A DNA stretch of 64,000 bases from a virus: the IMG/VR virus record IMGVR_UViG_3300050015_000743, positions 23,171 through 87,170 of that record; one strand, written 5' to 3'. This document shows, in pieces, positions 8,548-50,566 of this stretch. Under the pieces are notes generated by a model. It was given only the letters and a program-made list of their open reading frames with translations. It ran no database searches and was not told where the DNA came from. Position 1 is the stretch's first letter. Every line of letters begins with the position of its first letter. A program made the position numbers and the translations under genes.

Positions 8548-11500
8548 ATGGCTGAAGAAAAAAAAGGTGGAACTATATATCAGGAACTTAGTTCGTTTCT
8601 GAATCTCGGTGGTTTTGATGTACAGACTGCACAACCAACGGTATCTGCAAGTACACCGCCTAAAGAGTCGAAGATTATCATTAAAGGTAATTCTCCTGAA
8701 GAAATCTACAGAAAGGGTTTGGAACTGGAACAAAAAAGAGAACTTCAAAATAAGTTTTTCCGTACTACTGATAGAGGTTTTCAGAAGGCTTTACAATATG
8801 AAGCAGCCAGACTCCCAGCATATATTGATTATGAGGGTATGGAATATTACCCAATTATTAGTAGTGCATTGGATTTATTTATGGAAGAAGCAACAACCAT
8901 TGGTTTAAATGGTAAAATGTTGAACATATATTCAAATAAGGAAAGAATCAAGACAATATTAGAAGAATTTTTCTACGATACGGTTAACGTAAATGTTAAC
9001 CTACCATTCTGGGTAAGAAACACTGTTAAATATGGTGATAATTTCGTATTACTTTATGGTGAACGTAAAAAAGGTATTACTCACGTGAAACAACTCGTAA
9101 ACTATGAAATTGAGCGTTTCGAGAGAATTCAGAATGGAAAACCACTGGTGAAATTCAAAGAAAGGATGACTGGTGATGAATTTAACGTATTTGAAATTGC
9201 TCATTTTAGACTTCTTGGTGATGACAAATATTTACCCTACGGAAGTTGCTTATTATCAGATAGTTATATAAAAACAAGCAATGGAATTAAAGAAATTAAA
9301 AACATTTTAAAAGGCGATGTTGTTATTGGTTTTGATATCAAAACACAGAAAAAAATAGAATCTAAGGTATTGGATGTTGTTTGTAATGGAGAAAAACAAA
9401 CATATAAAATATCAACACAGCATAATTATCTTAAGTTAACTGATAATCATAAATTACCATATTACGATTACGATGATGATTTATTTAAAGAAAAATTTGT
9501 TAGTGAATTAAAAATCGGTGACGGATTAATTATAAATAATCATGATGATTATAATGAACAAATAAAAATTAATAAATCTATTGAAATTAAGGAGCATAAA
9601 AATAGAATATATGGTGATTTTGTTAATGATTTAAAATATATTCCAGATTATGTTGATAAAGATTTTGCAAAATTATTTGGATTTTTACTCGGAGATGGTG
9701 GTGTAAATGCAACAAGACCTTATATGGTATATTTTGCATATGGTGTACATGATATTATTAACCAAAAATATATTAATTTATTAGAAAAATACTCAAATAA
9801 AGAAATTTATTTAAGAAAAAATAATAAATATTCAAATGGGATTGCTTCAGCAGTTGTTAATTCAAAATCTTTAGCAACCATATTAAAAAATATGGAATTT
9901 GCTGGAGATTCAAGAACAAAAAGAATTCCAAAATGGTTGTTTTCCGCTTCCACAGATATTAGAAAAGCATTTTTGGAAGGATTACAAGACGCTGATGGGT
10001 CAGTAAATGTGGATAAATGGAATTGTAAAAGATTTGGCATTGAAATGTCTAATTATAGTTTAATTAATGATGTTAAACTATTAGCACAATCATTAGGATA
10101 TAAAACTGGTAGTATTAATAAAAGAAAAAAAAGAAATAATATTATTATTAATGGTATTAAAGTAAAAAATATTGCAGATGCATATCAATTATTTTATTAT
10201 GAGTCAAAAAATGAACAAACAATGTTTTCCGACATAGAAAATAGATTAACCAATGATTTTATTGTCGAAAAAATAAAATCGATTGAATTGGATGAAATTG
10301 GTTTTGTTTTTGATATTCAAGTTGATAATGAAAATCACAATTTTTTTGCAAATAATATTGTTGTTCACAATTCAGTACTTAATAAAGTTCGTAGAGTTTT
10401 TAGACAGTTAATTATGGCTGAAGATGCTATGTTAACATATCGTATTATCAGGGCAGGTGAAAAGAAAGTATTTAAAATTGATGTTGGAAACATTGATGAG
10501 GATGATATCGAAGAATATATCTACAAAGTAGCTACCAAGTTTAAAAAAACTGCACAGGTAGCTCCGAATGACGGACAGATTGATTACAGGTTTAATATAA
10601 TGGGAAATGATGAAGATTATTTCCTTCCAGTGAGAAATGCAAATACTCAAACAGGAATTGAAACCCTCCCGGGCGCATCCAATCTTGATGCAATTCAAGA
10701 TATTGAATATTTACGTGACAATTTATTTATTGGTTTAGGTGTTCCAAAACCATTTCTGAGTTTTCAAGATGCTGCTGGTGCTGGTAAAAACATGGCACAA
10801 TATGATATTCGTTTCGCAAAGAAAGTCAATCGTATTCAACAAGCTATGATTCAGGAACTCAATAAAATGGCAATGATACATTTGTATTTATTGGGTTATA
10901 CTGGCGAAGACCTTAATGATTTTGTTCTTACACTTACTAATCCTTCAACACAACAAGAATTACTTAAAGCCGAATTACTTCGTGAAAAAGCACAGACATA
11001 TGCTGAATTGACACGTGCTGAAGCTGGTATTGCTGCAATGTCACACACAGGTGCAAAACGTATGTTATTTAATATGAGTGATAGAGATATTGTAAATGAC
11101 TTGAAACAACAGAAAATGGAAAAAGTTATTATGCAAGAACTTCAGGATTCACCAGTTACAATCAAGAAAACTGGTTTATTTACCGATATTGATAAGAGAT
11201 TTGGTGAACCTCAAGGTGCTGCAATGGCAGGTGCTCCAACTGGTGGTACTGCTGGTGCTCCACCTGCTGGTGGTGCTCCTGCTGGTATGCCACCTCCACC
11301 TGCTGGCGGTGCTCCAGAAATAGGACTTCCACCTGAAGGCGGTGCTCCTGCTGGCGGTGCTGGTGCTCCACCTCCTGCTGGTGCTGGTGCTCCACCTGCT
11401 GGACTTCCACCTATGCAAGAAAATAGAATGACCGAAGATCAATATAATCTACAACTTGAAAAATTAGTATATGGTGACAGTTACCATCCAGCAGTGCATA

Positions 11501-11697
11501 GAAATGAAGTTAAGCGCAGAGAACTTATAAAAGAGAATGATGAAATTAACGATAACTTAAATAAAAATGCTTTCGATATGGTTAATGAAATTGATGCTTT
11601 ATTAGAAAAGGGTGAAACTATTAATGCCGAACATAAAATAAATGAAACCGAAGATATTGATTTCGAATCAATTGAAAACATTGAAGATATTGAGTAA
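8548..11697 (+). CDS. Portal protein precursor (gp20-like) interrupted by an intein
   Basis: The 1049-residue precursor becomes 674 residues after removal of residues 234-608. Joining the flanks gives LPYGS-SVLNKVRRVFRQL followed by EDAMLTYRI, a hallmark stretch of T4-type portals. The portal is the dodecameric DNA channel at the prohead vertex and the docking point for terminase. The C-terminal extein has an unusual Ala/Gly/Pro-rich tract (precursor residues about 890-957) and then an acidic helical tail. The start is set by a late promoter 23 bases upstream and the sequence MAEEKKGGT. The gene must splice to be functional because the intein interrupts a core portal region. Confidence 0.92.
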   Translation: MAEEKKGGTIYQELSSFLNLGGFDVQTAQPTVSASTPPKESKIIIKGNSPEEIYRKGLELEQKRELQNKFFRTTDRGFQKALQYEAARLPAYIDYEGMEYYPIISSALDLFMEEATTIGLNGKMLNIYSNKERIKTILEEFFYDTVNVNVNLPFWVRNTVKYGDNFVLLYGERKKGITHVKQLVNYEIERFERIQNGKPLVKFKERMTGDEFNVFEIAHFRLLGDDKYLPYGSCLLSDSYIKTSNGIKEIKNILKGDVVIGFDIKTQKKIESKVLDVVCNGEKQTYKISTQHNYLKLTDNHKLPYYDYDDDLFKEKFVSELKIGDGLIINNHDDYNEQIKINKSIEIKEHKNRIYGDFVNDLKYIPDYVDKDFAKLFGFLLGDGGVNATRPYMVYFAYGVHDIINQKYINLLEKYSNKEIYLRKNNKYSNGIASAVVNSKSLATILKNMEFAGDSRTKRIPKWLFSASTDIRKAFLEGLQDADGSVNVDKWNCKRFGIEMSNYSLINDVKLLAQSLGYKTGSINKRKKRNNIIINGIKVKNIADAYQLFYYESKNEQTMFSDIENRLTNDFIVEKIKSIELDEIGFVFDIQVDNENHNFFANNIVVHNSVLNKVRRVFRQLIMAEDAMLTYRIIRAGEKKVFKIDVGNIDEDDIEEYIYKVATKFKKTAQVAPNDGQIDYRFNIMGNDEDYFLPVRNANTQTGIETLPGASNLDAIQDIEYLRDNLFIGLGVPKPFLSFQDAAGAGKNMAQYDIRFAKKVNRIQQAMIQELNKMAMIHLYLLGYTGEDLNDFVLTLTNPSTQQELLKAELLREKAQTYAELTRAEAGIAAMSHTGAKRMLFNMSDRDIVNDLKQQKMEKVIMQELQDSPVTIKKTGLFTDIDKRFGEPQGAAMAGAPTGGTAGAPPAGGAPAGMPPPPAGGAPEIGLPPEGGAPAGGAGAPPPAGAGAPPAGLPPMQENRMTEDQYNLQLEKLVYGDSYHPAVHRNEVKRRELIKENDEINDNLNKNAFDMVNEIDALLEKGETINAEHKINETEDIDFESIENIEDIE
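9247..10371 (+). mobile_element. Intein with LAGLIDADG endonuclease in the portal gene
   Basis: A 375-residue intein in frame. It begins with Cys (CLLSDSYIKTSNGIKEIKN, block A), has a block B TDNHKLPYY (TxxH), and ends VVHN followed by Ser as the first extein residue. Two dodecapeptide motifs mark a LAGLIDADG homing endonuclease: LFGFLLGDGG and FLEGLQDADGS. All residues expected for splicing (Cys1, block B His, penultimate His, terminal Asn, +1 Ser) are present, so splicing is likely active. Base composition is more AT-rich than the flanking extein. Confidence 0.93.
11215..11410 (+). repeat. Ala/Gly/Pro-coding repetitive tract in portal C-terminus
   Basis: About 65 codons of imperfect repeats such as GGTGCTCCTGCTGG and CCACCTGCTGG encode Gly-Ala-Pro-rich sequence. 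It is clearly more GC-rich than the surroundings and is expected to be disordered. It could vary in length by slippage or recombination. Confidence 0.75.
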
Positions 11698-18869: not shown

Positions 18870-20774
18870 ATGAGTAAGATTTTACAAGCAGGGCAGACAG
18901 GATTTGGTATTTTGATCGAACATGATGCTGGATTTATTAGTGCTGATCTCAATCCACAATTTTTAACTGAAGCATTTGTAATTAAGCCAAATGAACCTGT
19001 ATTAATAACATGTATATTACAGAAATGGGGTGTTAAAAACAAAAACGGCAGGATATATCCTAAAGCGGTTTTAGTACCACAGGTCAATTTATATCAAGAT
19101 TTAATTAATACTAATAGTGCAGTTTCTGAAGCCGACCATCCCGACTGCGTCCAAGCATCTAATTCAGAGATACTTACAAAAGATGGTTGGAAATTAATTA
19201 AAAATATTTCAGAGGATGAAGAAATATTAACATTGAATAATTTAACTAACCAAATTGAAATTCAGAGAATTGAAAAGAAAATATATTTACCATATAAAGG
19301 TAAAATGTATAAATTTTCTGGTCAAAATATTGATATGACAGTCACTGCTAATCATAGATTTTTACTTGAAAATTCAAAGGGTGAAAGAAATTATTTTTTT
19401 GCTGAAGATATTTTTAATAATAAAAAAAATGTTTTTTCTTCTGGTCATTATAAGTTATTAAAAACAGGCGAATGGACGGGTCAATATAATGAATATTATA
19501 CATTAAATGGTGTTAACAGAAATTCATTAAGTTTCAATATGAAACATGATTTAATTGAAAAATATACACAACCAATTGATGTTAAGTCTGAAGATTGGTT
19601 TGCATTTATGGGTATTTATTTAGCTGAAGGACATTGTGGTGGTACAAAGTCTAATCAATATAAATTGAAGGGATATGATGTTGTTATAACACAGAAAAAT
19701 GAAGAAAAAAAGAAAATTATTGTAGAATTATTAAATAAATTACCGTTTAAATATTGGATTGATGAGCATGATAATGGAAAATGTCAATATCATATAGCTG
19801 ATGCAAGATTATACAATTATTTATTTCCATTAGGACATTCACATAATAAATTTATTCCAGTTGAATTAAAACAAGCATCATCAGATTTATTGAAAATATT
19901 TTTTAATTGGTTTCAGATTGGTGATGGAAGATCAGTTAAATCAAAGTACGAAAATTGGTCAAATAAAGAATCGGTTTTTTCAACATCAAAACAATTGATT
20001 GACGATTTGCATGAAATTCTAATTAAAATTGATGGAAACGGTAACATTACTACTTATCAACCTAAAGATAGATATTTAGTTGATCATTCGGTATTGAAAA
20101 GAGAGGTTATTTTATCTGATGGAACAGTTGAATATATCAATGAAGATATAAAAGAAAAAAGATTAGTTAAGGCTGAAAATAGTCATCTTCAATATAATTT
20201 AAATATATCAAAACGAAAAAATATTTGGCTTGATAAAAGAAGTATAACAATAAATAAAATTGATTTTGATGAAGAAATTGCTTGTGTTAGGGTAGCCAAT
20301 AGCAATTTCATGATTAGAGTAAATGGTAAATCACATTGGACTGGAAACTCTTCTATTATTTCTTTACAAAATCTCTCACATATGATAACAAAAATGTGGT
20401 GGGGAACTGGTGATAAAGAAAATGTTTTATATGGTCAATTAAAAATTATTGTAACTCGTGGATATATTAATTATGGCGTATGTTCAGTTATTGGTGATAA
20501 GATTGTTCTGTATCTTGAAAATAAAATAAGATTAGGTATTTCCAGCCGTGGAGTTGGTACACTTAAAGAAATTAATGGTGAAAATCTCGTACAAGGAGAC
20601 TTCGAACTAATTGGTTTTGACTTAGTTGCATCACCAAGTACCCCGGGCGCATTTCTTATGCCAGAAAAACAAGGCGATAAATCTGTTGGCGAGAATTATG
20701 TGCAGAAAAACGGTATATATCTTAAGGAAGACGAACAAAAAATAGTAACTGCTGTTAATAAGTTCTTATTGTAA
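18870..20774 (+). CDS. Prohead protease precursor (gp21-like) interrupted by an intein
   Basis: The 634-residue precursor becomes 233 residues after removal of residues 93-493, close to T4 gp21 (212). The N-extein ends SEADHPD, containing the His expected in the catalytic site. The C-extein continues SSIISLQNLSHMITKMWW and includes RLGISSRGVGTLKEI, with the expected catalytic Ser, then GFDLVASPSTPGAF. The family is a serine protease that cleaves scaffold and capsid proteins inside the prohead. The gene is followed by the scaffold and capsid genes, the same order as T4 21-22-23. It can only be active after protein splicing. Confidence 0.9.
   Translation: MSKILQAGQTGFGILIEHDAGFISADLNPQFLTEAFVIKPNEPVLITCILQKWGVKNKNGRIYPKAVLVPQVNLYQDLINTNSAVSEADHPDCVQASNSEILTKDGWKLIKNISEDEEILTLNNLTNQIEIQRIEKKIYLPYKGKMYKFSGQNIDMTVTANHRFLLENSKGERNYFFAEDIFNNKKNVFSSGHYKLLKTGEWTGQYNEYYTLNGVNRNSLSFNMKHDLIEKYTQPIDVKSEDWFAFMGIYLAEGHCGGTKSNQYKLKGYDVVITQKNEEKKKIIVELLNKLPFKYWIDEHDNGKCQYHIADARLYNYLFPLGHSHNKFIPVELKQASSDLLKIFFNWFQIGDGRSVKSKYENWSNKESVFSTSKQLIDDLHEILIKIDGNGNITTYQPKDRYLVDHSVLKREVILSDGTVEYINEDIKEKRLVKAENSHLQYNLNISKRKNIWLDKRSITINKIDFDEEIACVRVANSNFMIRVNGKSHWTGNSSIISLQNLSHMITKMWWGTGDKENVLYGQLKIIVTRGYINYGVCSVIGDKIVLYLENKIRLGISSRGVGTLKEINGENLVQGDFELIGFDLVASPSTPGAFLMPEKQGDKSVGENYVQKNGIYLKEDEQKIVTAVNKFLL
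19146..20348 (+). mobile_element. Intein with LAGLIDADG-type endonuclease in the prohead protease gene
   Basis: A 401-residue intein in frame. It begins with Cys (CVQASNSEILTKDGWKLIKN), has a block B VTANHRFLLE (TxxH) and ends GKSHWTGN followed by Ser. The penultimate residue is Gly rather than the usual His, with a His four residues earlier. Diverged dodecapeptide motifs FMGIYLAEGH and WFQIGDGRS indicate a LAGLIDADG homing endonuclease. It differs in sequence from the portal intein, suggesting independent arrival. Confidence 0.9.
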
Positions 20775-20870
20775 TGGAATTTATAAGCGCATAAGATAGT
20801 TATAATTTTTCTTAAAAACAAGAAAATTAAGGTTGTTTTTATAAAAAAAAATGCTTTTTGGTAAAAATAA

Positions 20871-20880
20871 CGTATTTATA
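20871..20880 (+). promoter_or_regulatory. Late promoter motif CGTATTTATA
   Basis: CGTATTTATA, 37 bases before the ATG at 20918. It falls inside an in-frame TTG-initiated extension beginning at 20858, which argues for the downstream start. Confidence 0.6.
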
Positions 20881-20917
20881 TAAAAATTATAGTATTAGTA
20901 AGGACATTTTTAATAAC

Positions 20918-22537
20918 ATGGAAAACGAAAAAAAATCGATAGTAAAGGAAGCGTTAGTTGATTTTAAAAATATTCAACAAGCTGCGGATGCTAATGCTAA
21001 GAAAAGATTGGCTGCAGAATTCCCAAAAGAATTCGGCAATATTTTGAAAGAAGAATTAAATAAAAATAAACCAGCGAAAGAATCCTATAAAAAACTGGAT
21101 GAAGCTGAATCAAATAAAGAAACTGATATGAAAAATTTAACAAATGAGACCCCAAAGGTTGTTAAGGAAGCTGCAGGTAAAGGTTTACCATTTAATACAA
21201 AAGCAAAAGGTGTACAAAAAGTAGCAGAAGATGTAAAAATTACTGATACTGTAGGTAAAGGTGAACCTTTTGATGAAAAAGCAAAAGGCGTACAGAAAAT
21301 TGCTGAAGAACGTGAAAAAGATTTCATGGGCGATGTAGAAGGCGAAACACCAAACCAAGGTAAAGGTGAAGCTGAAAAAGGTAAAATATTTAACGAAAAG
21401 CTCAAAGGTCCGACCTCTGGCAAACCAATTGCTAATACAAAAAAAGACGTATCAGAGAATTATGATTTAACAGAACTTGATATGAGTGGTGTAGGTACAG
21501 CATTAGAAGGTGCAGACAACATGGATGAAGTTCTTTCACTGGAACAAATTGAAGAAGAAATTAACGCTATGGAAACAGCAAATGAAGAACTTGCTGGCGG
21601 TGGAACACCATCAGTAGGAAGTCCATATGAAGGACTTGTTGAAATGCGTGATAAACTTGATGGTATGATTAAAGGCATGGGTAGCATGGGTGAGCAGAAA
21701 AACAACGGTGGCAAAGGTGCAAACGTAGTTATGGCTGGCGGTCCTAACCAAGCTAAAATTGATGAACTTGATGTTTATGAACAAAAAAATAATGGTGGAC
21801 AAGGTGCTAACAAAGTAAATGCTGGCGGTCCTACCCAACCTATGATTGATGAAGTAGGTAGTGAAGACGAAATCACTCCTGAAATGATTGATCAAGTATT
21901 AGGTCAAAAAGAAGAAAAACCTGTTGAAGAAAGTCTTACACAGACATTAGGAAATATGAAGAAAGTTCCTTCAACTTCAATCCCGGGTGTTGATTACAAG
22001 AGCACAGGCGCAGTTAATAAAATGCGTTCAGGTTTACGTACAGAATCAGAGAAAAAGATTAGTGGTTTAATCGAAGTTAACAAAAAATTAGCTAAGAAAT
22101 TAAACGAAACTAAAAAATATAAAGAATCCGTTACAGGATTAGTTGAAAGTTATAAGTCCGCACTTGACAAGTATCGCAGTCAGTTAAAAGAAATGGCAGT
22201 TTTCAATACCAATTTGGCACACGTCAATAATTTATTGGTTAACGAAGAGTTGGCATTAACGCAAGAGGACAAGATTAAGATCATCGACGAATTTAAAAAA
22301 GTCGATAGTATTGTTGCTTCACAGAAGGTGTATAAAAACTTCCTTACAGAAATGAAGGGTGGAAAGAAAACACTTACTGAAAGTATTGAGGATAAAGTAT
22401 CAGCTTCTATACAGCCATCTTCAAAACAAAAACTTGATGAAGTAGTAGAAAAAACAGCCTATACCAATGATAAACATATCATGAGAATGAGAAAAATCAT
22501 GGAAACTATAGAGCATAGAGGCAAAAAAATAATTTAA
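20918..22537 (+). CDS. Prohead core scaffold protein (gp22-like)
   Basis: A 539-residue protein starting MENEKKSIVKEAL. It lies between the protease and the major capsid gene, as T4 gp22 does. The C-terminal half is a coiled coil (LIEVNKKLAKKLNETKKY onward) of the kind expected for a scaffold core, ending IMETIEHRGKKII. The N-terminal half is acidic and contains two repeat families: GKGxPFxxKAKGVQK (near residues 84-140) and EQKNNGGxGAN with xAGGPxQ (near 268-310). The repeats may reflect internal duplication. It would be degraded by the protease during maturation. Capsid starts 25 bases later in the same unit. Confidence 0.82.
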   Translation: MENEKKSIVKEALVDFKNIQQAADANAKKRLAAEFPKEFGNILKEELNKNKPAKESYKKLDEAESNKETDMKNLTNETPKVVKEAAGKGLPFNTKAKGVQKVAEDVKITDTVGKGEPFDEKAKGVQKIAEEREKDFMGDVEGETPNQGKGEAEKGKIFNEKLKGPTSGKPIANTKKDVSENYDLTELDMSGVGTALEGADNMDEVLSLEQIEEEINAMETANEELAGGGTPSVGSPYEGLVEMRDKLDGMIKGMGSMGEQKNNGGKGANVVMAGGPNQAKIDELDVYEQKNNGGQGANKVNAGGPTQPMIDEVGSEDEITPEMIDQVLGQKEEKPVEESLTQTLGNMKKVPSTSIPGVDYKSTGAVNKMRSGLRTESEKKISGLIEVNKKLAKKLNETKKYKESVTGLVESYKSALDKYRSQLKEMAVFNTNLAHVNNLLVNEELALTQEDKIKIIDEFKKVDSIVASQKVYKNFLTEMKGGKKTLTESIEDKVSASIQPSSKQKLDEVVEKTAYTNDKHIMRMRKIMETIEHRGKKII

Positions 22538-22561: not shown

Positions 22562-24241
22562 ATGGGATTTTTAATGGAAAGTGCGGAAGTTGGCAATATT
22601 GGATTAAAACAACTCCGTGAACAAAGAGAAATAACAACAAACCGTTGGGAAAAAATCGGTCTTCTTGAAGGTCTTGAAGGTAACGTAAAAGAGAATTGCG
22701 CACAGCTTTTCGAAAACCAGTTATCACACATGATCAACGAGTCTTCAGATTCAAGCAATAGCGGACAGTTCGAAACTGTTGCATTCCCTGTAATCCGTAG
22801 AGTATTTGCAAAATTACTTGCAAACGATATCGTGTCTGTACAAGCACTTAACTTACCTATTGGTAAATTGTACTATATTAACCCTAAAGCAAGCGTAAGA
22901 GTTGATCAATCACCTAATTTCAATCACACATCACCAGATGGTGCTTATGGAAACGCTGCTGAAAAAGCATTGAGCGCAAAAACTCAATTCGAAAGTCGTT
23001 CATTATACGATGCATTCTATGCAACTGAGTATGCTGAAGAAGGTACATCATTATTTGATCGCTCAAAAGGCGACATGATTGTTGTTACTGGTACAACTAC
23101 TGCATCTGCATGGGTTGTTGGTGTTGATAAATATGTTACCTTAACACTTGCTGGTTTCAGTATCACAAATGAAGGTAAATTAATCGGTCCTGCTGGTGTT
23201 CCTATGGATACTGAATCTTTCCTTGCTGGTTTGAGAATAACCGCAAGTGTTAAATTAGTAGCTCCTGCACCTTATGCAACTGACGGTTCAATTACTGCTG
23301 GACAGGCTATTCCTTTCAACGTTAAAGTTCAAAAATACGGACAGGCAATCGTTGACAAAACTGGAAAAATCGTTCTTATAGCTGACGTACAATATGCTGG
23401 AACTAATGGTTACAGTGCATTAAGCGCAACAACTGTATCAACTGGTATCACTTTCACTGCAACTTACAGAGTATACAGTGACCTTGAAGAAGATTCAAGA
23501 ATGGCTGAAGTAACTTTCGTACTTGACCAAGTAACAGTATCTGTAGAAACACGTAAAATGCGTGCTATGTGGACACCTGAACTTGCACAGGACGTTAGTG
23601 CATTCCACAACATTGACGCTGAAGCAGAGTTAACAGCTTTACTTTCAGAACAAATGGCTGCTGAAATTGACCGTGAAATTCTTCGTGACCTAAGACGTGG
23701 CGCAGCATGGACAGCAAGATGGGACTATAATGGTCTCCGTAAAGGAACTAACACTTACTACGGTGTTCAGAAAGACTGGAATCAAACATTGATCACAAAG
23801 ATCAACCAGATTTCAGCACAGATTCACAAAGCAACCTTAAGAGGTGGCGCATCATGGGTAGTAGTATCCCCAGAAGTTAGTGCAGTATTCGATGACCTTG
23901 AATATTTCCACGTATCTAACGCTGCTCCAGAGCAGGATAAATACAACATGGGTATTGAGAAAATTGGTACTCTTAGTGGACGTTATCAGGTATATCGTGA
24001 CCCATACGCACCAGCTAACACAGTATTAGTTGGACATAAAGGAACAAGTATCTTGGAAACAGGTTACATCTACGCTCCTTACGTACCAATGCAGTTAACC
24101 CCTGTAATGTATAACCCATTTGATTTCACACCAATCCGTGGTATCATGACACGTTATGCAAAGAAAATGGTACTTAACAGATACTATGGTAGAATCTTCT
24201 GCGATGGTCTTCAGACCTTCGGAATTGGTGACTTACAGTAA
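22562..24241 (+). CDS. Major capsid protein (gp23-like)
   Basis: A 559-residue HK97-fold capsid subunit; T4 gp23 is 521. The N-terminus TTNRWEKIGLLEGLEG followed by NCAQLFENQ aligns with the T4 gp23 N-terminal region (KW..LLEG, then IFENQ). Later segments match the family: MWTPELAQDVSAFHNIDAEA, then YAPYVPMQLTP and MTRYAKKMVLNRYYGR. Candidate protease sites of LxE form (LLE at 34-36, LFE at 49-51) lie in the N-terminal part. Codons are notably tidier and GC-richer than in neighbours, typical for a highly expressed gene. A terminator follows directly. Three small early proteins in this window resemble its first 85 residues. Confidence 0.96.
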   Translation: MGFLMESAEVGNIGLKQLREQREITTNRWEKIGLLEGLEGNVKENCAQLFENQLSHMINESSDSSNSGQFETVAFPVIRRVFAKLLANDIVSVQALNLPIGKLYYINPKASVRVDQSPNFNHTSPDGAYGNAAEKALSAKTQFESRSLYDAFYATEYAEEGTSLFDRSKGDMIVVTGTTTASAWVVGVDKYVTLTLAGFSITNEGKLIGPAGVPMDTESFLAGLRITASVKLVAPAPYATDGSITAGQAIPFNVKVQKYGQAIVDKTGKIVLIADVQYAGTNGYSALSATTVSTGITFTATYRVYSDLEEDSRMAEVTFVLDQVTVSVETRKMRAMWTPELAQDVSAFHNIDAEAELTALLSEQMAAEIDREILRDLRRGAAWTARWDYNGLRKGTNTYYGVQKDWNQTLITKINQISAQIHKATLRGGASWVVVSPEVSAVFDDLEYFHVSNAAPEQDKYNMGIEKIGTLSGRYQVYRDPYAPANTVLVGHKGTSILETGYIYAPYVPMQLTPVMYNPFDFTPIRGIMTRYAKKMVLNRYYGRIFCDGLQTFGIGDLQ

Positions 24242-25539: not shown

Positions 25540-25884
25540 TTAATAGTTACAAATTCTTATTTTTAATTTATATTGTTTTGCTAAATCAATCATATGACCT
25601 GTGCCTTTACTTGTACCATCCCAGAAAGCAATCAGTGCATCACCATACTCAGCCATTTGCTTATTCCTGATATAACCTGCTGATCTGCCTTTATTCCAGT
25701 CTGCAGGAAATCTGGTTGTTTTATACCCTCTTTCAATTGCGTATCTTTCACCCAGATGATCAGCACCCTTCGCTGCACCACTGACAATTTCGATATCCTG
25801 TTGATCTTTAAGAACTTTATCACAGAACTCCCGTAGTTTCTGGTAATCATCAAAATCTCTACCACCAGCTATTATTACTTTCAT
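25540..25884 (-). CDS. DUF2493 / YspA-like SLOG-family protein
   Basis: A 114-residue Rossmann-like protein. MKVIIAGGRDFDDY at the start, SGAAKGADHLGERYA in the middle and FWDGTSKGTGHMIDLA near the end are the signature elements of the YspA or cpYpsA-related SLOG family, thought to bind nucleotides or nucleotide-derived ligands. Essentially the whole protein is this domain. Its start overlaps the upstream stop (TAATG). Such genes are frequent in phage genomes, where a role in NAD- or ADP-ribose-related signalling has been proposed; none can be shown here. Confidence 0.8.
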   Translation of the reverse strand: MKVIIAGGRDFDDYQKLREFCDKVLKDQQDIEIVSGAAKGADHLGERYAIERGYKTTRFPADWNKGRSAGYIRNKQMAEYGDALIAFWDGTSKGTGHMIDLAKQYKLKIRICNY

Positions 25885-26240
25885 TATTTAGCAGGTATAA
25901 TTTTTTCTTCAGGATAACACCTATCAAACCATTCTTTTACACTTTCATCAGGGTCGCCATTATCACTTAAATGAAAAGCATACCTCTTAATAATCGCTAT
26001 TATTTCCTCTCTGGTATAAACTTTAAGCGGTATAATATCTGTACAGAATGAATTATCGTCTTCACCAATTACATAAGATTCTTTCGATTCAAACATTGCA
26101 GCCATATTTACATCAGAATTTCCAACAAGACCATCCAATATGCCTGATTTTTCCCAACGATTAATCGTTTCTTCTTTTACTTTGTGAAGTTGTTCTAAAC
26201 CATTAACGGGTTTTTCGGTTGTTTTTTTAGTTTTCTTCAT
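25884..26240 (-). CDS. Small protein resembling the capsid-protein N-terminus
   Basis: A 118-residue protein. Residues 14-58 align without gaps, at identical residue numbers, with residues 14-58 of this phage's major capsid protein. By hand I count 23 identities in 45, including NRWEK, GL at 37-38, GN at 40-41 and FE at 50-51. The rest (VYTREEIIAIIKRYAF onward) is an unrelated or more diverged acidic helical part. It lies in an early-type operon, starts with ATGA overlap to a 40-codon gene, and ends in a TAATG overlap. Function unknown; a scaffold- or protease-interacting role is inference. Confidence 0.65.
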   Translation of the reverse strand: MKKTKKTTEKPVNGLEQLHKVKEETINRWEKSGILDGLVGNSDVNMAAMFESKESYVIGEDDNSFCTDIIPLKVYTREEIIAIIKRYAFHLSDNGDPDESVKEWFDRCYPEEKIIPAK

Positions 26241-26359
26241 AACATCTTTTTTAATAAATAACTTAAAGAAAAATATTCTCCTTTTTCTTTAGCACAAATT
26301 TCATAATAAATCCGTTTATAGTAAAACATCTTTACTTTCATCTCATCAATTTTCTTCAT
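26237..26359 (-). CDS. Candidate 40-residue micro-protein
   Basis: Translates as MKKIDEMKVKMFYYKRIYYE onward, ending SYLLKKML. Its start lies inside the end of the helicase gene and its stop shares ATGA with the next gene, a translational-coupling arrangement used throughout this operon. It fills the only gap in the operon. Basic and aromatic-rich. A second ATG at codon 7 could also serve. Function unknown. Confidence 0.4.
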   Translation of the reverse strand: MKKIDEMKVKMFYYKRIYYEICAKEKGEYFSLSYLLKKML

Positions 26360-27833
26360 CTATCCAAGTTCTATCATAAATTAATTCCAATTTTGCTCTG
26401 GTTATTGCCACATATTCCAAGTTTTTTTCCTGAATATACTGCCAACCCTTGACGTTTTGCATTGGTAGTAAGTCTGGGCGTATAATAAATACTCTGTCTG
26501 CTTCCAAACCTTTGATTTTATGTACTGTACTCAAAACAATACCCTGAATTTCGTCAGTAAATATGGTTTTAATACTTGCTTTAAGGTCTGTTATATTCGT
26601 ACTGAGTCTGGCAAGGAATAACAATGTTCTGACTTTATCTTCAAGCGCACTGTAACCACTATGTTCATATGGATTAAGTATACCATCAGCTTTTAAGTCT
26701 CTCTTAAAACTATCGAGTTCTGCTTCCCAGAAACTAATAAGTTTTTCAATTGTTGTGATCTTACCAATTAACTCAATCAGATGTACACCAATATCCGAAC
26801 CTTTAATTATTGCTTTTTTCTTCTGTGTTAAAAACTGAAAAAATAGTTTTACCAATGGCATAGTTGTTCTACAAAGAATAAAGTCACCACTACGTGCTTC
26901 ACTGACAACACTACCGTCCCTTACAAGACCTTCTGGTGCATCTGGGAGTGCTTTGATGTCTGGAACGATCTTCTGTGCTTCTTTTATAACATTTTGTGAG
27001 CATCTGAACGATACAGAAAGTGGTAAAATCTTAGTATTAGGAAATTTTTCAAACCATTCAAAAGATTTTTCATCAGCAGCGTTAAATCCATAGATTCCCT
27101 GAAAGAAATCACCTACACTGATCAGTCTACCTGTGATTTTCTTACTAATTCTGTCTTTCTTCAAAATCTTTTCCACAATTTTTATCTGGCAACGATTTAA
27201 ATCCTGAATTTCATCAACGAAAACATAATCCTGTGGGAAAAACCATATACCATTATCAATTGCTGGTAGATAAATTTCATCTGTGAAATCATATGTGTCC
27301 CTGTTGACTGACATCTCATCCAATACTTTAAGTACCCTCTTGATATCCTTTGGTTTTGTGAGGTTTATGTCATATCTGTCAGCAATGTACGGTATGTATT
27401 CAGCCTTATGGGTTAAGGTAAGTCTACAAAGATTGCTGAGTTTCTTAATATTGTTCAAATAATTATTAATTGCTTCCTCATCTTTAAGTTCTTCATCCAA
27501 ATTCCAAGATTTTGCTTTTCTCTGAATTATTTTATCTGCTTTAAATTCATCGAATTGAATACTATCACCGTATTTTCTCTTAATTGCACCAGTACCAATG
27601 CCGTATGTGGTATAACAACGAATACCCTCATTTAATTTACTTTTAAGTTCTTCCTGAATATGCTTATTAAATGCTAAAAATATAATATTTTTATCTTTGG
27701 GCAATAAATTAACTGCTTCAACAATAGTGCTGGTTTTACCTGTCCCGGCATATGCCCTAATTAATATATTTTCATGTCTTTTTTTAATAAAAGTAAATAT
27801 TCTTTCCTGTTCAGGAGTTGGTTTATGGTTCAT
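26346..27833 (-). CDS. Superfamily 1 DNA helicase (UvrD/Dda-like)
   Basis: A 495-residue helicase. Motif I (Walker A) is RAYAGTGKTST, motif II YVFVDEIQDLNRCQ, motif III GDFFQGIYGFNAAD, motif IV SFRCSQN, motif V STVHKIKGLEADRVF and motif VI EYVAITRAKLEL; all are present in order. It is shorter than UvrD and closer to the size of T4 Dda, so a role in replication initiation, recombination or fork remodelling is likely. It is the longest gene of the early-type operon. A GIY-YIG endonuclease gene lies 3 bases upstream. Confidence 0.88.
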   Translation of the reverse strand: MNHKPTPEQERIFTFIKKRHENILIRAYAGTGKTSTIVEAVNLLPKDKNIIFLAFNKHIQEELKSKLNEGIRCYTTYGIGTGAIKRKYGDSIQFDEFKADKIIQRKAKSWNLDEELKDEEAINNYLNNIKKLSNLCRLTLTHKAEYIPYIADRYDINLTKPKDIKRVLKVLDEMSVNRDTYDFTDEIYLPAIDNGIWFFPQDYVFVDEIQDLNRCQIKIVEKILKKDRISKKITGRLISVGDFFQGIYGFNAADEKSFEWFEKFPNTKILPLSVSFRCSQNVIKEAQKIVPDIKALPDAPEGLVRDGSVVSEARSGDFILCRTTMPLVKLFFQFLTQKKKAIIKGSDIGVHLIELIGKITTIEKLISFWEAELDSFKRDLKADGILNPYEHSGYSALEDKVRTLLFLARLSTNITDLKASIKTIFTDEIQGIVLSTVHKIKGLEADRVFIIRPDLLPMQNVKGWQYIQEKNLEYVAITRAKLELIYDRTWIDEEN

Positions 27834-27836
27834 TAT

Positions 27837-28787
27837 TTATTTAATTTTTAAATTAAATTGATTATTATTAGGTTGTTTCATGTGTAAACATATTTCATTG
27901 AGCCAATTATTTCTATGCGCTGAATCATATGCTGAAGATGATTCCAAGTGAAAATCATTTCTTTTATTATATTTAATTGCCTCGTTTTTACAATTTTCAT
28001 ATGTCCAATAATATATTGGTTTTACAATTTCTATCATATGTGAGCAAATTTCATTAAGGCAATTATTTCTTCGTGCAGCATTATATGCACCACAAGATTT
28101 TTTTTGAAATTCACTTCTCGTATTATATTTTAAAGCCTCTTTCATAAGATTCTTGATACTCCATTTAAATATATTACCACCCAAACCGCCTCCCTTTATT
28201 TTATTTAATAAAAACCAATTATTCTTTCTATATTCATTAATAAAAAAAATTTCATTAATCGCAGCATCAGATTCATCAATGGGCGTATTGACCAACATTT
28301 TAAATGTTGGATTTAATTTAGTTTTTTTAATATAATTTAAAACTGCTGAATCTGCGGAATTGATTAATCCAAGATGTACTTTATTCCTTTTGTTCATATC
28401 ATACGTTAATCCAACATAAACGTGATTATCAATGAATTCAAATGCATAAACATATCTTTTTTTATGTGTTTGATTTGTTACCATATGTGAGCATATTTCA
28501 TTAAGCCAACCATTTTTTCGTGCAGCATTATATGCACTACTGGAATTTTCAATAAATTTACTTCTATTTTGATATTTTAATGCCTCAATATGACATCTAT
28601 CCAACACCCAATAATTAGGTGGATTGATGACCTTTTTCATATGCTGACACAATTCATCAACCCAATTATTCTTAATCACCTTATTATAAGCAGTTGGTGA
28701 TCTATGTTTAAATTCGTTTTTTGTGTTATACTTTAATGCTTCTTTACTACAAACATCTTTACTCCAATAATTTGCCGATTTTCTCAT
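27837..28787 (-). CDS. GIY-YIG endonuclease with four flanking repeats
   Basis: A 316-residue protein. A central GIY-YIG domain (RYVYAFEFIDNHVYVGLTYD, about residues 113-200) is flanked by two copies before and two after of a repeat of about 45 residues. The repeat core is EALKYNTRSEFQKKS, then AYNAARRN and LNEICSHM. The repeats are probably DNA-binding modules like those in homing endonucleases. The gene is inserted exactly between the YkgJ-like gene (TAAATG junction) and the helicase gene, consistent with a free-standing mobile endonuclease. Confidence 0.8.
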   Translation of the reverse strand: MRKSANYWSKDVCSKEALKYNTKNEFKHRSPTAYNKVIKNNWVDELCQHMKKVINPPNYWVLDRCHIEALKYQNRSKFIENSSSAYNAARKNGWLNEICSHMVTNQTHKKRYVYAFEFIDNHVYVGLTYDMNKRNKVHLGLINSADSAVLNYIKKTKLNPTFKMLVNTPIDESDAAINEIFFINEYRKNNWFLLNKIKGGGLGGNIFKWSIKNLMKEALKYNTRSEFQKKSCGAYNAARRNNCLNEICSHMIEIVKPIYYWTYENCKNEAIKYNKRNDFHLESSSAYDSAHRNNWLNEICLHMKQPNNNQFNLKIK

Positions 28788-33975: not shown

Positions 33976-34719
33976 TTATTTAATATATTTATAATTTTCA
34001 AATTTCTTATTCTTTGATCGTAATCTCCATAATATGGTTGATATTGAAATTCCCAATTTTTTATATGCATCACCAAGTGAAAAATATTCGATGTTATTAA
34101 TACTGAACCTAATATTTTGTGTTCCACTATATTTACCTTTTCGCTGTTTTGATAATTCGTTTTTTGTTTCAATTGTATGATGTTTATTAAAAAACGAATT
34201 ATTTTCTCCACTAAATGGTCTACAAGATTTACAATATATTGCATTATTCGATATTCTTTTACCACAATTACAGTAATTATATGTTTTACCATCTTTCCAA
34301 TTGGGATTATTTTCCATTGGTCTTGAATATTTATCTTTCCTTTCAACATCATTCATGTTTTTTATGGTGGCATGAAGCGTTTTTTTCATTTTAGCAATAA
34401 TTTCATTCTTTTTGGGATTATTACTTAAATTATCTCCACCGCTTGCGATTTTTCCGATATTATATTTTGGTTTCAAATTTAAGTATTTTTGTTCCAAAAT
34501 CAATAAATCATTAATATCACATTCTTCAATAATTTCAAAAACAAAATTTTTTTCACCATATTTATTCCATGCTCTTTGTAATTTAATATTTTCGTGTTTA
34601 TTATTTCTTAATCCACATCTATGTCTATCCCATCTTCTTGTAATATTTTTTGCTGACCCTATATAGCAGTTTTTATTAATTATGTTTTTTATTCTATAAA
34701 TTCCACTTATCATCGCCAT
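33976..34719 (-). CDS. GIY-YIG homing endonuclease with zinc finger
   Basis: A 247-residue protein. GIY-YIG catalytic domain at residues 5-90 (SGIYRIKNIINKNCYIGSAK, then RWDRH and WNKYGEKNFVFEI). A Cys4-type finger follows (YCNCGKRISNNAIYCKSC) and then a basic DNA-binding tail with a helix-turn-helix-like end, ISTILWRLRSKNKKF. It lies next to the thymidylate synthase gene, a classic homing target in T4. It carries its own late-type promoter. Confidence 0.87.
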   Translation of the reverse strand: MAMISGIYRIKNIINKNCYIGSAKNITRRWDRHRCGLRNNKHENIKLQRAWNKYGEKNFVFEIIEECDINDLLILEQKYLNLKPKYNIGKIASGGDNLSNNPKKNEIIAKMKKTLHATIKNMNDVERKDKYSRPMENNPNWKDGKTYNYCNCGKRISNNAIYCKSCRPFSGENNSFFNKHHTIETKNELSKQRKGKYSGTQNIRFSINNIEYFSLGDAYKKLGISISTILWRLRSKNKKFENYKYIK

Positions 34720-36072: not shown

Positions 36073-36291
36073 TTAAAATATTGCACTAAATGCAATAATA
36101 TATTTTGGTTTTATTGTATTGTAAATATCTTCAATAAAAACATCATCGGGTTTTATTTCGATTGTATTAATGTCCGAAAGAAAAAATGCATCACCTTGTA
36201 CGTGAATTACTACACCATCTTTTGATAAATAAGAAGGTATCATGTCTGAATTTGTATATAGACTTCCTTTAATTAATATATTTCCCGTCAT
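36073..36291 (-). CDS. Small hypothetical protein
   Basis: A 72-residue, beta-rich protein (KDGVVIHVQGDAFFLSDINT). Overlaps the upstream gene by ATGA. Unknown function. Confidence 0.45.
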   Translation of the reverse strand: MTGNILIKGSLYTNSDMIPSYLSKDGVVIHVQGDAFFLSDINTIEIKPDDVFIEDIYNTIKPKYIIAFSAIF

Positions 36292-36644
36292 TTTTGTAGT
36301 TTATTTATTTGATATTCAGTAAATTCGTGCATGAATTCACATTCAAGACCTAATGAACTAATACCGTTGAACTTACCAAAATCATATGCTTCCACAGCAG
36401 GACGTACTTCTTTACAGATGTTCAGTACTTCTTCATCACTGAGATCAATCTTTTTAATAATCAATAAAATTATTGAAATTGGAAGTGTCTCGTATATTTC
36501 ATCGGGGTTAATTGTTTTATCCGAAGTCCATTTACATGAGAGATTTAATGCATGTACCGCTTTATCTTTACGATCTTCTGGAATGGTTTCCAGTAAACCT
36601 AAATCTTCCCACTTTTCTCTTGTATAACCTTCGAAATTTTCCAT
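36288..36644 (-). CDS. Capsid-N-terminus-like small protein, paralogue of next gene
   Basis: A 118-residue protein. KWEDLGLLETIPEDRKDKA aligns with the capsid segment RWEKIGLLEGLEGNVKENC. The later IYETLPISIILLIIKKIDLS aligns with capsid FETVAFPVIRRVFAKLLAN. It is clearly related to its upstream neighbour (WExxGxLExxPEDRKD shared). The C-terminal part (ECEFMHEFTEYQINKLQK) pairs with HFVKTFCESKINQYKN of that neighbour. It starts at a TAATG junction. Tandem duplication is the simplest origin. Confidence 0.6.
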   Translation of the reverse strand: MENFEGYTREKWEDLGLLETIPEDRKDKAVHALNLSCKWTSDKTINPDEIYETLPISIILLIIKKIDLSDEEVLNICKEVRPAVEAYDFGKFNGISSLGLECEFMHEFTEYQINKLQK

Positions 36645-36988
36645 TAGTTTTTATATTGATTTATTTTTGATTCACAGAATGTCTTAACAAAATGTAATTC
36701 TGGGTCGGCTGACTTTTCATCTTTAGTTGGGTCAAAACTTAACCAAGCATGGTAAAAATCTTTAAGAATTTCTATAACCTGTGACTCAGTTAAATCAACA
36801 ACTTTAGCAATTCTATACATTATAGGAAGTACTAATGTTTCAAGTTCACCTTGTCTTTTTCCTCTTACGAGTGTATCATCAGTAACCCATTTAATTGCAA
36901 GATTAAAACAGTTTACTACCATGTCTTTTCTGTCTTCGGGAAGTTCTTCTAAGAAGCCTATTCTTTCCCAATTTTTTTTTGTTATCAT
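36644..36988 (-). CDS. Capsid-N-terminus-like small protein
   Basis: A 114-residue protein starting MITKKNWERIGFLEELPEDR. An upstream in-frame ATG at 37021 would overlap the dUTPase gene by 29 bases; the ATG at 36988 lies 4 bases after the dUTPase stop and is preferred. NWERIGFLE matches capsid RWEKIGLLE. GELETLVLPIMYRIAKVVDL matches capsid GQFETVAFPVIRRVFAKLLA at nearly the same distance, so similarity covers about 60 residues rather than one motif. Function unknown. Confidence 0.62.
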   Translation of the reverse strand: MITKKNWERIGFLEELPEDRKDMVVNCFNLAIKWVTDDTLVRGKRQGELETLVLPIMYRIAKVVDLTESQVIEILKDFYHAWLSFDPTKDEKSADPELHFVKTFCESKINQYKN

Positions 36989-36992
36989 AGTC

Positions 36993-37475
36993 TTATTGTT
37001 TTCCTGTGCTCCCGAACCCATCTGCGCCCCTATTGGTTTCGCTGAGTTCCTGTGCTTCGATCATTTTTATTTTTGGTATTGGTATGATTATCATTTGTGC
37101 CACACGTTCACCGACTTCATATGCATTTCCACCGTAATCAAACATCTTGTCAGTACCCACATTATATGCATTTACCTTTGTGCCATAGAACCTACAACGT
37201 ACCTCTCCACGAAACCATGCATCAATTACGCCTACTGCATTTTTTAACATAAGGTCTTCATCGGTTACTGAACTTCTTGGAAATATTAATCCTATCATAC
37301 CCACAGGTATTTCAAATGCCAAGCCTATGCCGTATTCCACATATTTTTCTGTTTCAATTTTTGAAACTGCTGTGAGATCATAGCCACCGTCAGTTTCGTA
37401 TTTTTGAAAAGGTGCTTTTGCTTCTGGTACTAATTTCTTGTACTTTATATTTGTAAAATCGTATACTTTTGCCAT
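36993..37475 (-). CDS. dut: dUTPase
   Basis: A 160-residue trimeric-type dUTP diphosphatase, making dUMP and lowering dUTP. All five motifs are present: TDGGYDLTA, FPRSSV, GVIDAWFRGEV, GERVAQMIII and RGADGFGSTG at the C-terminus. Full length for the family. It lies in the same operon as thymidylate synthase and MazG, a nucleotide-pool module. Confidence 0.95.
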   Translation of the reverse strand: MAKVYDFTNIKYKKLVPEAKAPFQKYETDGGYDLTAVSKIETEKYVEYGIGLAFEIPVGMIGLIFPRSSVTDEDLMLKNAVGVIDAWFRGEVRCRFYGTKVNAYNVGTDKMFDYGGNAYEVGERVAQMIIIPIPKIKMIEAQELSETNRGADGFGSTGKQ

Positions 37476-37750: not shown

Positions 37751-38410
37751 TTATCCTATATATCTATTACCTTTACTTAAATTTTTTGTTGCTTCCAATG
37801 GTTGTAAATTTGAAAGTGCCCATGCGTCCTTAAATTCAGTTTCTAAATTAAACCAGCTTAATGGTTTAATGTGATCAATGTGCCAATAAATTCCATAATT
37901 CTCCCAAGTCATTTCAGTGGTGAATTTATTTTCAAGATGTTTTATTAAATCATCAATCGAAAACTCTACAAAACTCAACCAAGTTGTATTGTTTTTATTC
38001 TTTTTTAAACATTCCCAAATTGCTTTACTCATATTCATACTAACTCTTTTATATGGGTCTTTTCTTTGTTTATTTTGATAATCACGAGCTTGTTTTAAAT
38101 TTTGTTCTTTATGATTAACTTTCCAATTATTTTTATATTGATTCGATTTTTCTCTATTATTTTCAACCCACGTTTTACTTCTTTTTAAAATTTTTGTTTT
38201 ATTTTTATTATAATTGGATTTCGTGTTCCTTTTTTGTCTTTCTGGATTTCTTTTATTACATTGTTTATTAAGATTTCTTTTACATTCATAACAAATTCCA
38301 GTGTTCACATATCTTTTATTAATGTGTCCATTTTTACAAGGTATTCCAGAATAGTACCATTTTTGATTTAAATTGATTGCTTCTTCTTTGGATATAACTA
38401 ATTTCTCCAT
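37751..38410 (-). CDS. HNH homing endonuclease with N-terminal Cys motif
   Basis: A 219-residue protein. An N-terminal element (GIPCKNGHINKRYVNTGICY followed by ECKR) has four Cys and one His in a zinc-binding arrangement. A very basic linker follows. The C-terminal HNH domain shows YWHIDHIKPLSWFN, ALSNLQPLEATKNLSKGNRY. A late-type promoter lies just upstream. It separates the dUTPase/hypothetical pair from MazG, consistent with insertion into an existing operon. The C-terminus is shared with the partial HNH gene at the window end. Confidence 0.87.
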   Translation of the reverse strand: MEKLVISKEEAINLNQKWYYSGIPCKNGHINKRYVNTGICYECKRNLNKQCNKRNPERQKRNTKSNYNKNKTKILKRSKTWVENNREKSNQYKNNWKVNHKEQNLKQARDYQNKQRKDPYKRVSMNMSKAIWECLKKNKNNTTWLSFVEFSIDDLIKHLENKFTTEMTWENYGIYWHIDHIKPLSWFNLETEFKDAWALSNLQPLEATKNLSKGNRYIG

Positions 38411-49904: not shown

Positions 49905-49938
49905 AAAAATGAGATATATAATTATGTATCTCATTTTT
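49905..49938. terminator. Bidirectional terminator
   Basis: A 12-base-pair stem (AAAAATGAGATA / TATCTCATTTTT) with a 10-base loop, between the tube stop and the convergent endonuclease stop, which it touches. Confidence 0.8.
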
Positions 49939-50566
49939 ATTTAATATTAATCCAGATTTTATTATTAATTATTTGATTTATTGTTGTGCAACAGACATTA
50001 TATTTTATAGCTATTTTGGGTTGTGAAATTTTTTCTTCATTATACATTTTTCGTATAATAATAATGTCCTCTGGTGTTAATTTAGAATGTGGTCGTCTAT
50101 TGGTTGGTATACCCTTCTTCTTTGAAGACATTTGATTTCTCATGCTTATTGAAAGAGTTACATTGAATTTTGGGTGCTCTGCACCATGTTTGCCATACAT
50201 CGGATTGTTTATTCCCAACATACGTTTTGATTGTTTGCTTTTGGTTTCTTCAGAGCATTTTTTACCTAAACATATTTTTTGTGGGTCATTGATATTGTAA
50301 CCGTGATTATTGTTTAATGTATTATATATTTTAACACACTCATTTTCTTTTATTAATAATTCATTTGCAGAGCACACTAAAATTATTGAAAATTCAAAAT
50401 TATCTCTACCATATTTATTCCAAGCTGATTGTAGGTGTGGATTGTGATGTATATTATGATTTAAGTGCCACTTATGGTCACGCCAGCGTTTTTTAATATC
50501 AGTGGCACTTCCGATATAAATTTTGTTGTTAATCTTATTTAATATTTTATATATTCCTGTTATCAT
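49937..50566 (-). CDS. GIY-YIG homing endonuclease
   Basis: A 209-residue protein. GIY-YIG domain at residues 3-95 (TGIYKILNKINNKIYIGSAT, RWRDH, WNKYGRDNFEFSI). The C-terminal half has the NUMOD-like basic linker (KCSEETKSKQSKRMLGINNP) and a helix-turn-helix (SQPKIAIKYNVCCTTINQII). It is a SegA-like free-standing homing endonuclease. It resembles the one at 33976-34719 in its catalytic half. No promoter seen in its upstream region. Confidence 0.88.
   Translation of the reverse strand: MITGIYKILNKINNKIYIGSATDIKKRWRDHKWHLNHNIHHNPHLQSAWNKYGRDNFEFSIILVCSANELLIKENECVKIYNTLNNNHGYNINDPQKICLGKKCSEETKSKQSKRMLGINNPMYGKHGAEHPKFNVTLSISMRNQMSSKKKGIPTNRRPHSKLTPEDIIIIRKMYNEEKISQPKIAIKYNVCCTTINQIINNKIWINIK

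What the first reader, a model, noticed from the sequence alone, without database searches (positions are those of the whole stretch)
25884..26240. Early-operon protein is a gap-free copy of the capsid protein N-terminus
Residues 14-58 of this 118-residue protein align with residues 14-58 of the phage's own major capsid protein without a gap and at the same residue numbers, with 23 of 45 positions identical by my hand count (NRWEK, GL, GN, FE among them). The T4 gp23 N-terminus is a propeptide-like region used in assembly and removed by the prohead protease. A small protein carrying it, encoded on the opposite strand with early-type control, could act as a decoy, timer or chaperone for prohead assembly, or mark a more general interaction module.
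Basis: partly seen in the sequence, partly recalled or inferred. Interest (0 to 1): 0.85.

Follow-up and report, generated by a model that had tools for sequence, protein, structure and literature searches.

The report
Small phage protein copying capsid propeptide
A large T4-like virus of bacteria carries several small non-structural genes whose proteins reuse the removable front end of its own major capsid protein; the resemblance is real, old and kept by selection, which suggests a portable docking tag, but what it docks to is not yet known.

Summary
Residues 14-64 of the 118-aa protein (25884-26240, -) align gap-free with residues 14-64 of the phage's gp23-type capsid protein (25/51 identical, BLASTP E 6e-14; 23/45 over 14-58, as stated). 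Profile comparison agrees (97%, E 6e-11). It is not a recent copy: third codon positions are 37% identical, and the module is under purifying selection (dN/dS 0.15-0.30). The shared stretch is the gp23 propeptide motif (W..xGLLxGL...FE...IxE), including an I-x-E at the residue where MCP has its predicted prohead-protease site.

It is not a one-off. The same module sits in unrelated small proteins of relatives. A second class of ~120-aa helical proteins matches MCP residues 28-87; two lie in this window (36644-37021, 36288-36644), a third elsewhere in the genome. Another MCP segment (about 369-475) also occurs alone in relatives. These genes lie among helicase, thymidylate synthase and dUTPase genes and lack a GTATTTATA motif found before structural genes, so non-late expression is plausible, not shown.

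Most likely it is a portable docking module for a partner of the capsid N-terminus (chaperonin GroEL or prohead core). A packaged internal protein, an immune decoy and plain domain shuffling remain open.

The parts
25884..26240 (-). 118-aa protein; residues 14-64 are the gp23-propeptide module; residues 58-60 (I-G-E) fall on the MCP's I-N-E; residues 75-111 are a separate C-terminal domain shared with L003
   Evidence: dN/dS 0.15-0.30 for the module and 0.24 for the C-terminus
22562..24241 (+). major capsid protein, gp23 type; its residues 14-64 (22601-22753) are the matching propeptide region with the predicted prohead-protease site INE at 58-60
   Evidence: Pfam PF07068 E 1.4e-75; I/LxE at this place in all 36 distinct sequences
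36644..37021 (-). class II paralogue, 125 aa: WERIGFLEELPEDRK...GELETLVLPIMYRIAK plus its own C-terminus; corresponds to MCP residues 28-84
   Evidence: found by MCP N-terminus; class II profile; AlphaFold2 five-helix model, pLDDT 83.5
36288..36644 (-). second class II paralogue, 118 aa, in tandem with the one above, start and stop overlapping
   Evidence: E 2e-17 to the class II profile
18870..20774 (+). prohead core serine protease (Peptidase_S77, gp21 type) with an intein-like insertion; the candidate processing enzyme
   Evidence: Pfam PF03420 E 1.3e-12; Intein_splicing below cut-off
20858..22537 (+). probable scaffold (gp22 position, between protease and MCP), many [IL]xE sites; a possible docking partner
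   Evidence: position only, no family match; sites listed
25540..25884 (-). SLOG-family (YAcAr) protein directly downstream in the same cluster
   Evidence: Pfam PF10686 E 2.4e-19
26346..27833 (-). UvrD/Dda-like helicase upstream in the same cluster
   Evidence: PHROG 1967 E 2.4e-89; Pfam UvrD-helicase

Best explanation
The protein is a standalone paralogue of the gp23 propeptide, one of a family of small non-structural proteins in these phages that reuse pieces of the capsid protein. SHOWN: homology of the module, its age, purifying selection, reuse in several unrelated protein contexts. INFERRED: the module is a portable docking tag that is recognised by whatever binds the N-terminus of newly made capsid protein. 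The best-documented partner of that N-terminus in T4 is the chaperonin GroEL; the other candidate is the prohead core (scaffold, protease). By docking there, the small protein either brings its attached domain (here the C-terminal ~40 residues) to the partner, or competes with capsid protein for it and so tunes folding or the start of head assembly.
For: Gap-free module, E 6e-14; profile match 97%. Module found with different companions: behind a 'YGSELCAGDM' domain (L003, L008, L032), inside a GGYCPxCLHA protein (L037), almost alone (L004, L069). Class II proteins match MCP residues 28-84, including the ETxxFPxIxRI stretch, which was not part of the model that found them. Third codon positions near background while the protein is kept; dN/dS 0.15-0.30 and 0.22 for class II. 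Constant core in the class I forms: [RK]W-x3-G-[LIV]-L, even in L008, which ends there. [quoted passage not shown] T4 propeptide roles include prohead-core targeting and chaperonin recruitment (PMC10052503).
Against: No partner was tested. AlphaFold2 of this protein is poor (pLDDT 46.8), so no binding surface can be argued. GroEL targeting was shown for T4 gp23, whose N-terminus is only distantly related. No Cpn10/gp31 homologue was found in 22 related records, so a specialised chaperonin system is not evident (records are fragments). The C-terminal domain is unknown.
Confidence: 0.42

Rival explanations
1. Capsid-targeted internal protein: the module works like a capsid-targeting sequence, carries the protein into the prohead, and the phage protease cuts after I-G-E (residue 60), freeing a ~58-residue C-terminal domain that is packaged and ejected into the next host.
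For: I-x-E lies at the MCP cleavage residue in this protein (VIGE) and in L003 (RIPE), although the residues around it are quite different (ESKESYV against QADACQR); L069 has IIDE one residue later. All 36 distinct MCP sequences keep [IL]xE there. The C-terminal domain is strongly conserved between this protein and L003 (E 2e-19, dN/dS 0.24). A gp21-type protease is encoded at 18870-20774. T4 internal proteins are cleaved N-terminally by gp21 (PMC9958956).
Against: L004 and L008 lack both site and cargo; class II proteins lack the site. No late-type GTATTTATA motif upstream. In L003 the module is internal, not N-terminal. I-x-E is a weak motif.
Confidence: 0.2
2. Immune decoy: the phage makes capsid-protein pieces early so that a host sensor of the capsid protein is occupied or blocked before real capsid protein appears.
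For: Two separate MCP regions occur alone in these phages: residues 7-84 and about 369-475. Capsid proteins are known triggers of bacterial immunity, e.g. CapRel (PMC9712102) and a TIR system (PMC11312562). Genes lie in replication-type clusters without the late-type motif.
Against: Known sensors are activated by capsid protein, so a mimic could as well trigger them; no host sensor identified; the propeptide is removed in the mature head. The modules are tied to other conserved domains, which a simple decoy would not need.
Confidence: 0.13
3. Domain shuffling only: fragments of the MCP gene recombined into neighbouring small genes and were adopted as generic helical pieces with functions unrelated to the capsid.
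For: Phage protein mosaicism is widespread (PMC10684548). Most class I copies sit 2-4 kb from the MCP gene at one locus, between helicase and SLOG gene. In L170 two MCP fragments lie next to each other in MCP order. The class II protein models as a compact five-helix protein.
Against: The capsid-like core (W-x3-G-x-L) is the part that persists in every context, and class II copies lie at several distant loci, which a random helical piece would not need.
Confidence: 0.22
4. Chance similarity or low-complexity artefact.
For: Short segment; helical, charged composition.
Against: E 6e-14, none of 2000 shuffles near the score; same match in independent relatives.
Confidence: 0.01

Closest known systems
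N-terminal propeptide (residues 1-65) of T4 gp23 and other gp23-type capsid proteins
   Same: Same motif order: W, then a G-L-rich turn, helix, FENQ, then [LI]xE before the mature protein
   Different: Here on a 118-aa non-capsid protein from a helicase cluster on the other strand; FENQ has become FESK; no HK97-fold domain follows
T4 internal proteins (IPI-III, Alt) with capsid-targeting sequence
   Same: Small proteins, N-terminal segment ending in a candidate [LI]xE protease site, variable cargo
   Different: T4 targeting sequence is ~10 aa and not the capsid propeptide; packaging and cleavage untested here; relatives L004 and L008 have no site
Phage protein mosaicism (PMC10684548)
   Same: Protein fragments shared between functionally different phage proteins
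   Different: I found no description of the major capsid protein's propeptide as the shuffled part

Membership tests
Gp23 major capsid protein (PF07068) | HK97-fold capsid domain matched by the Pfam model | tested here: not met
   No Pfam or PHROG family for the protein; 118 aa only
gp23 propeptide module | W-x3-G-[LI]-L-x2-L core with following helix, alignable without gaps to cognate MCP N-termini | tested here: met
gp23 propeptide module | [LI]xE protease site at the end of the segment | tested here: met
   I-G-E at 58-60 on MCP I-N-E 58-60; absent in L004 and L008
T4-type internal (packaged) protein | Sequence similarity to known internal proteins or their targeting sequence | tested here: not met
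   tblastn of the protein against 50,697 phage records, T4 included: no match at E 0.1; a ~10-aa targeting sequence alone could be missed
T4-type internal (packaged) protein | Present in the virion and cut by the prohead protease | not testable with these tools
   needs virion proteomics or a cleavage assay
GroEL-targeted protein | Binds or is folded by GroEL | not testable with these tools
   literature only, for the T4 gp23 N-terminus (PMC3012670)

The most novel reading that the evidence does not exclude
These phages run a general strategy of expressing pieces of their own capsid protein as separate small non-late proteins (at least two different capsid regions, several per genome), either to pre-empt host sensors of capsid protein or to control capsid folding and assembly before the capsid itself is made.
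Probability: 0.28. Interest if true: 0.85.

Novelty: new variant of a known kind. Interest (0 to 1): 0.62.

Why it matters
What the gp23 propeptide binds, and how proteins are sorted into the T4 prohead core, are open questions (PMC9958956 calls the localisation mechanisms 'mysterious'). Natural proteins that keep only the propeptide module, in several contexts and with truncations, give a ready set of minimal constructs to find its partner. If they act on capsid-sensing immunity or on the chaperonin, they are a new way for a phage to manage its own capsid protein.

Tried and rejected
AlphaFold2 of the protein itself: pLDDT 46.8, only helices 14-32, 42-51, 77-89, 99-108 suggested, not used further. 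Foldseek of the class II model: no PDB or BFVD match at E<=0.001; profile A3 against PDB sequences: none. Pfam/PHROGs for the small proteins: no significant match. Standalone copies in 13 named or uncultured T4-like phage records: A1 hits only capsid proteins; A3 gives one weak 118-aa ORF in LR756508 (E 0.013), a 46-residue stretch with stops in LR756511 (E 0.05), and a partial hit inside a 440-451-aa ORF of NCTC12673 (E 5e-6) that I judge spurious. Bacterial genome contigs with the small protein: none. Cpn10/gp31: none in 22 records. Sigma-70 scan uninformative (40 against 32 expected); Bacteroidota-type promoter pattern not enriched. Recent duplication rejected by codon-position identities. 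Module tree too short for firm branching; this protein, L003 and L004 group together at 0.975.

Full report
CHECK. The ORF 25884-26240 (-) encodes 118 aa. Of 2000 shuffles none exceeds a Smith-Waterman score of 53 against 127 observed. A profile of the protein and two homologues against a profile of 11 MCPs gives 97.1%, E 6e-11. The same residue numbers are a coincidence: the 13 residues in front are unrelated, and in relative L003 the module starts near residue 70.

AGE AND SELECTION. Aligned codon by codon, the two modules share 30, 35 and 19 of 51 bases at codon positions 1, 2 and 3. Third positions are near background while the protein is half identical, so this is an old paralogue kept at protein level. 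Between this protein and relatives L003 and L004, dN/dS of the module is 0.15-0.30, and 0.24 for the C-terminal domain (short sequences, NG86 method). A decaying relic is unlikely.

WHAT THE SEGMENT IS. Aligned with gp23 N-termini of T4, Flavobacterium phage immuto, Microcystis phage Mel-JY01, GAP32 and others, the shared stretch is the gp23 propeptide: W, a G-L-rich turn, a helix with FENQ, then [LI]xE. [quoted passage not shown] All 36 distinct MCP sequences examined in this phage group have INE, LNE or LKE there. The small protein has I-G-E at exactly that place and L003 has I-P-E, although their neighbouring residues differ completely. That MCP is cut at this site in these phages is predicted, not shown.

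HOW WIDESPREAD. Eighty MCP loci were fetched, and 50 whole records searched with a module profile, a class II profile and a full-length MCP profile. Class I (propeptide module alone or fused): this protein; L003, 157 aa, behind a 'YGSELCAGDM' domain; L004, about 54-60 aa, module only; L008, 79 aa, cut after the first half; L032, 123 aa; L037, 177 aa, module inserted in a protein whose homologue in L003 lacks it; L069/L070/L085, 56 aa. Standalone YGSELCAGDM proteins without the module also occur (L051, L011, L039, L042), so the module is a separable unit. Class II: about 115-150 aa, WExxGLLEGL...ETxxFPxIxRI plus its own C-terminus. The five-sequence class II profile, containing no MCP, hits the MCP N-terminus of the records that hold it at E about 1e-11 to 1e-14 over MCP residues 28-87 (hhalign 97%). 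Its ETxxFPxIxRI part was not in the model that first found these proteins, so that agreement is independent. This phage's record has three class II genes: window 36644-37021 and 36288-36644 in tandem, and G000:6810-7265 outside the window. A second MCP region, about residues 369-475 (WDYxG...DWNQTLxTKxNQ...), also occurs alone in several relatives (G025 168 aa, G037 154 aa, G010-012 279 aa, G038 52 aa, L237 94 aa, and weaker ones in G027, G028, G032). In L170 a propeptide ORF and such a fragment are adjacent, in MCP order.

WHERE EXPRESSED. The gene follows a UvrD/Dda-like helicase gene and abuts a SLOG gene; class II genes lie between dUTPase and thymidylate synthase genes. TATAAATA/TATTTATA is over-represented in the window (26 against 13.4 expected). 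GTATTTATA (15 sites, 1.6 expected) lies in coding orientation within 60 bases upstream of many genes, structural ones among them, and 63 of 77 MCP loci have it within 2.2 kb upstream of MCP. Of the small MCP-fragment genes that could be located, all but one (L004) lack it within 150 bases upstream. If it is a late promoter, these genes are not late; that is inference.

STRUCTURE. AlphaFold2 gives no usable model of the 118-aa protein (pLDDT 46.8). The class II protein is predicted well from only four sequences (pLDDT 83.5, five helices), without a match in PDB or BFVD.

MECHANISM. Across class I contexts, what is always kept is the core [RK]W-x3-G-[LIV]-L; cleavage site and cargo are optional. 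A portable docking tag for a partner of the capsid N-terminus fits this best. The N-terminus of T4 gp23 directs fusion proteins to GroEL (PMC3012670), and T4 propeptides are credited with core targeting and chaperonin recruitment (PMC10052503). Which partner, and whether the protein uses it or competes for it, is not shown. The internal-protein reading has the conserved I-x-E and the conserved C-terminal domain in its favour, but L004, L008 and class II against it. The decoy reading has the two-region mimicry in its favour, but no host sensor.

HOST AND SCOPE. Contigs with closely related capsid genes (81-96% identical) occur in MAGs labelled Bacteroidota and Bacteroidales, a weak hint at the host. 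All related records are metagenomic and many are fragments, so absence from a record means little.

Noticed in passing
window, e.g. 8516, 11738, 20872, 29474, 39906, 48664 (+) and 18175, 38432, 42754, 54721 (-): Motif GTATTTATA (15 sites, 1.6 expected), mostly 12-45 bases before genes, many of them structural; candidate late promoter of this phage group, also upstream of MCP in 63 of 77 relatives.
   Followed up: partly
relatives: L171:1794-2297, L068:17700-18161, L172:1481-2317, L237:9355-9636, L170:1419-1574: A different capsid-protein segment (about residues 369-475, DWNQTLxTKxNQ) occurs alone in small proteins of several related phages.
   Followed up: partly
window 18870-20774 and 8548-11697: Prohead protease gene and a large head gene with portal-like position both carry intein-like insertions (Intein_splicing below cut-off for the first; the second by eye).
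   Followed up: no
L173:1329-1841: 171-aa protein between sheath-like and tail-tube-like genes contains 'YHNVDAEAEISKLLEEEM', like MCP 'FHNIDAEAELTALLSEQM' (E about 0.02).
   Followed up: no
window 33976-34719, 49937-50566, 37751-38410, 27837-28787: Several ORFs look like GIY-YIG or HNH homing endonuclease genes scattered among phage genes (by eye).
   Followed up: no
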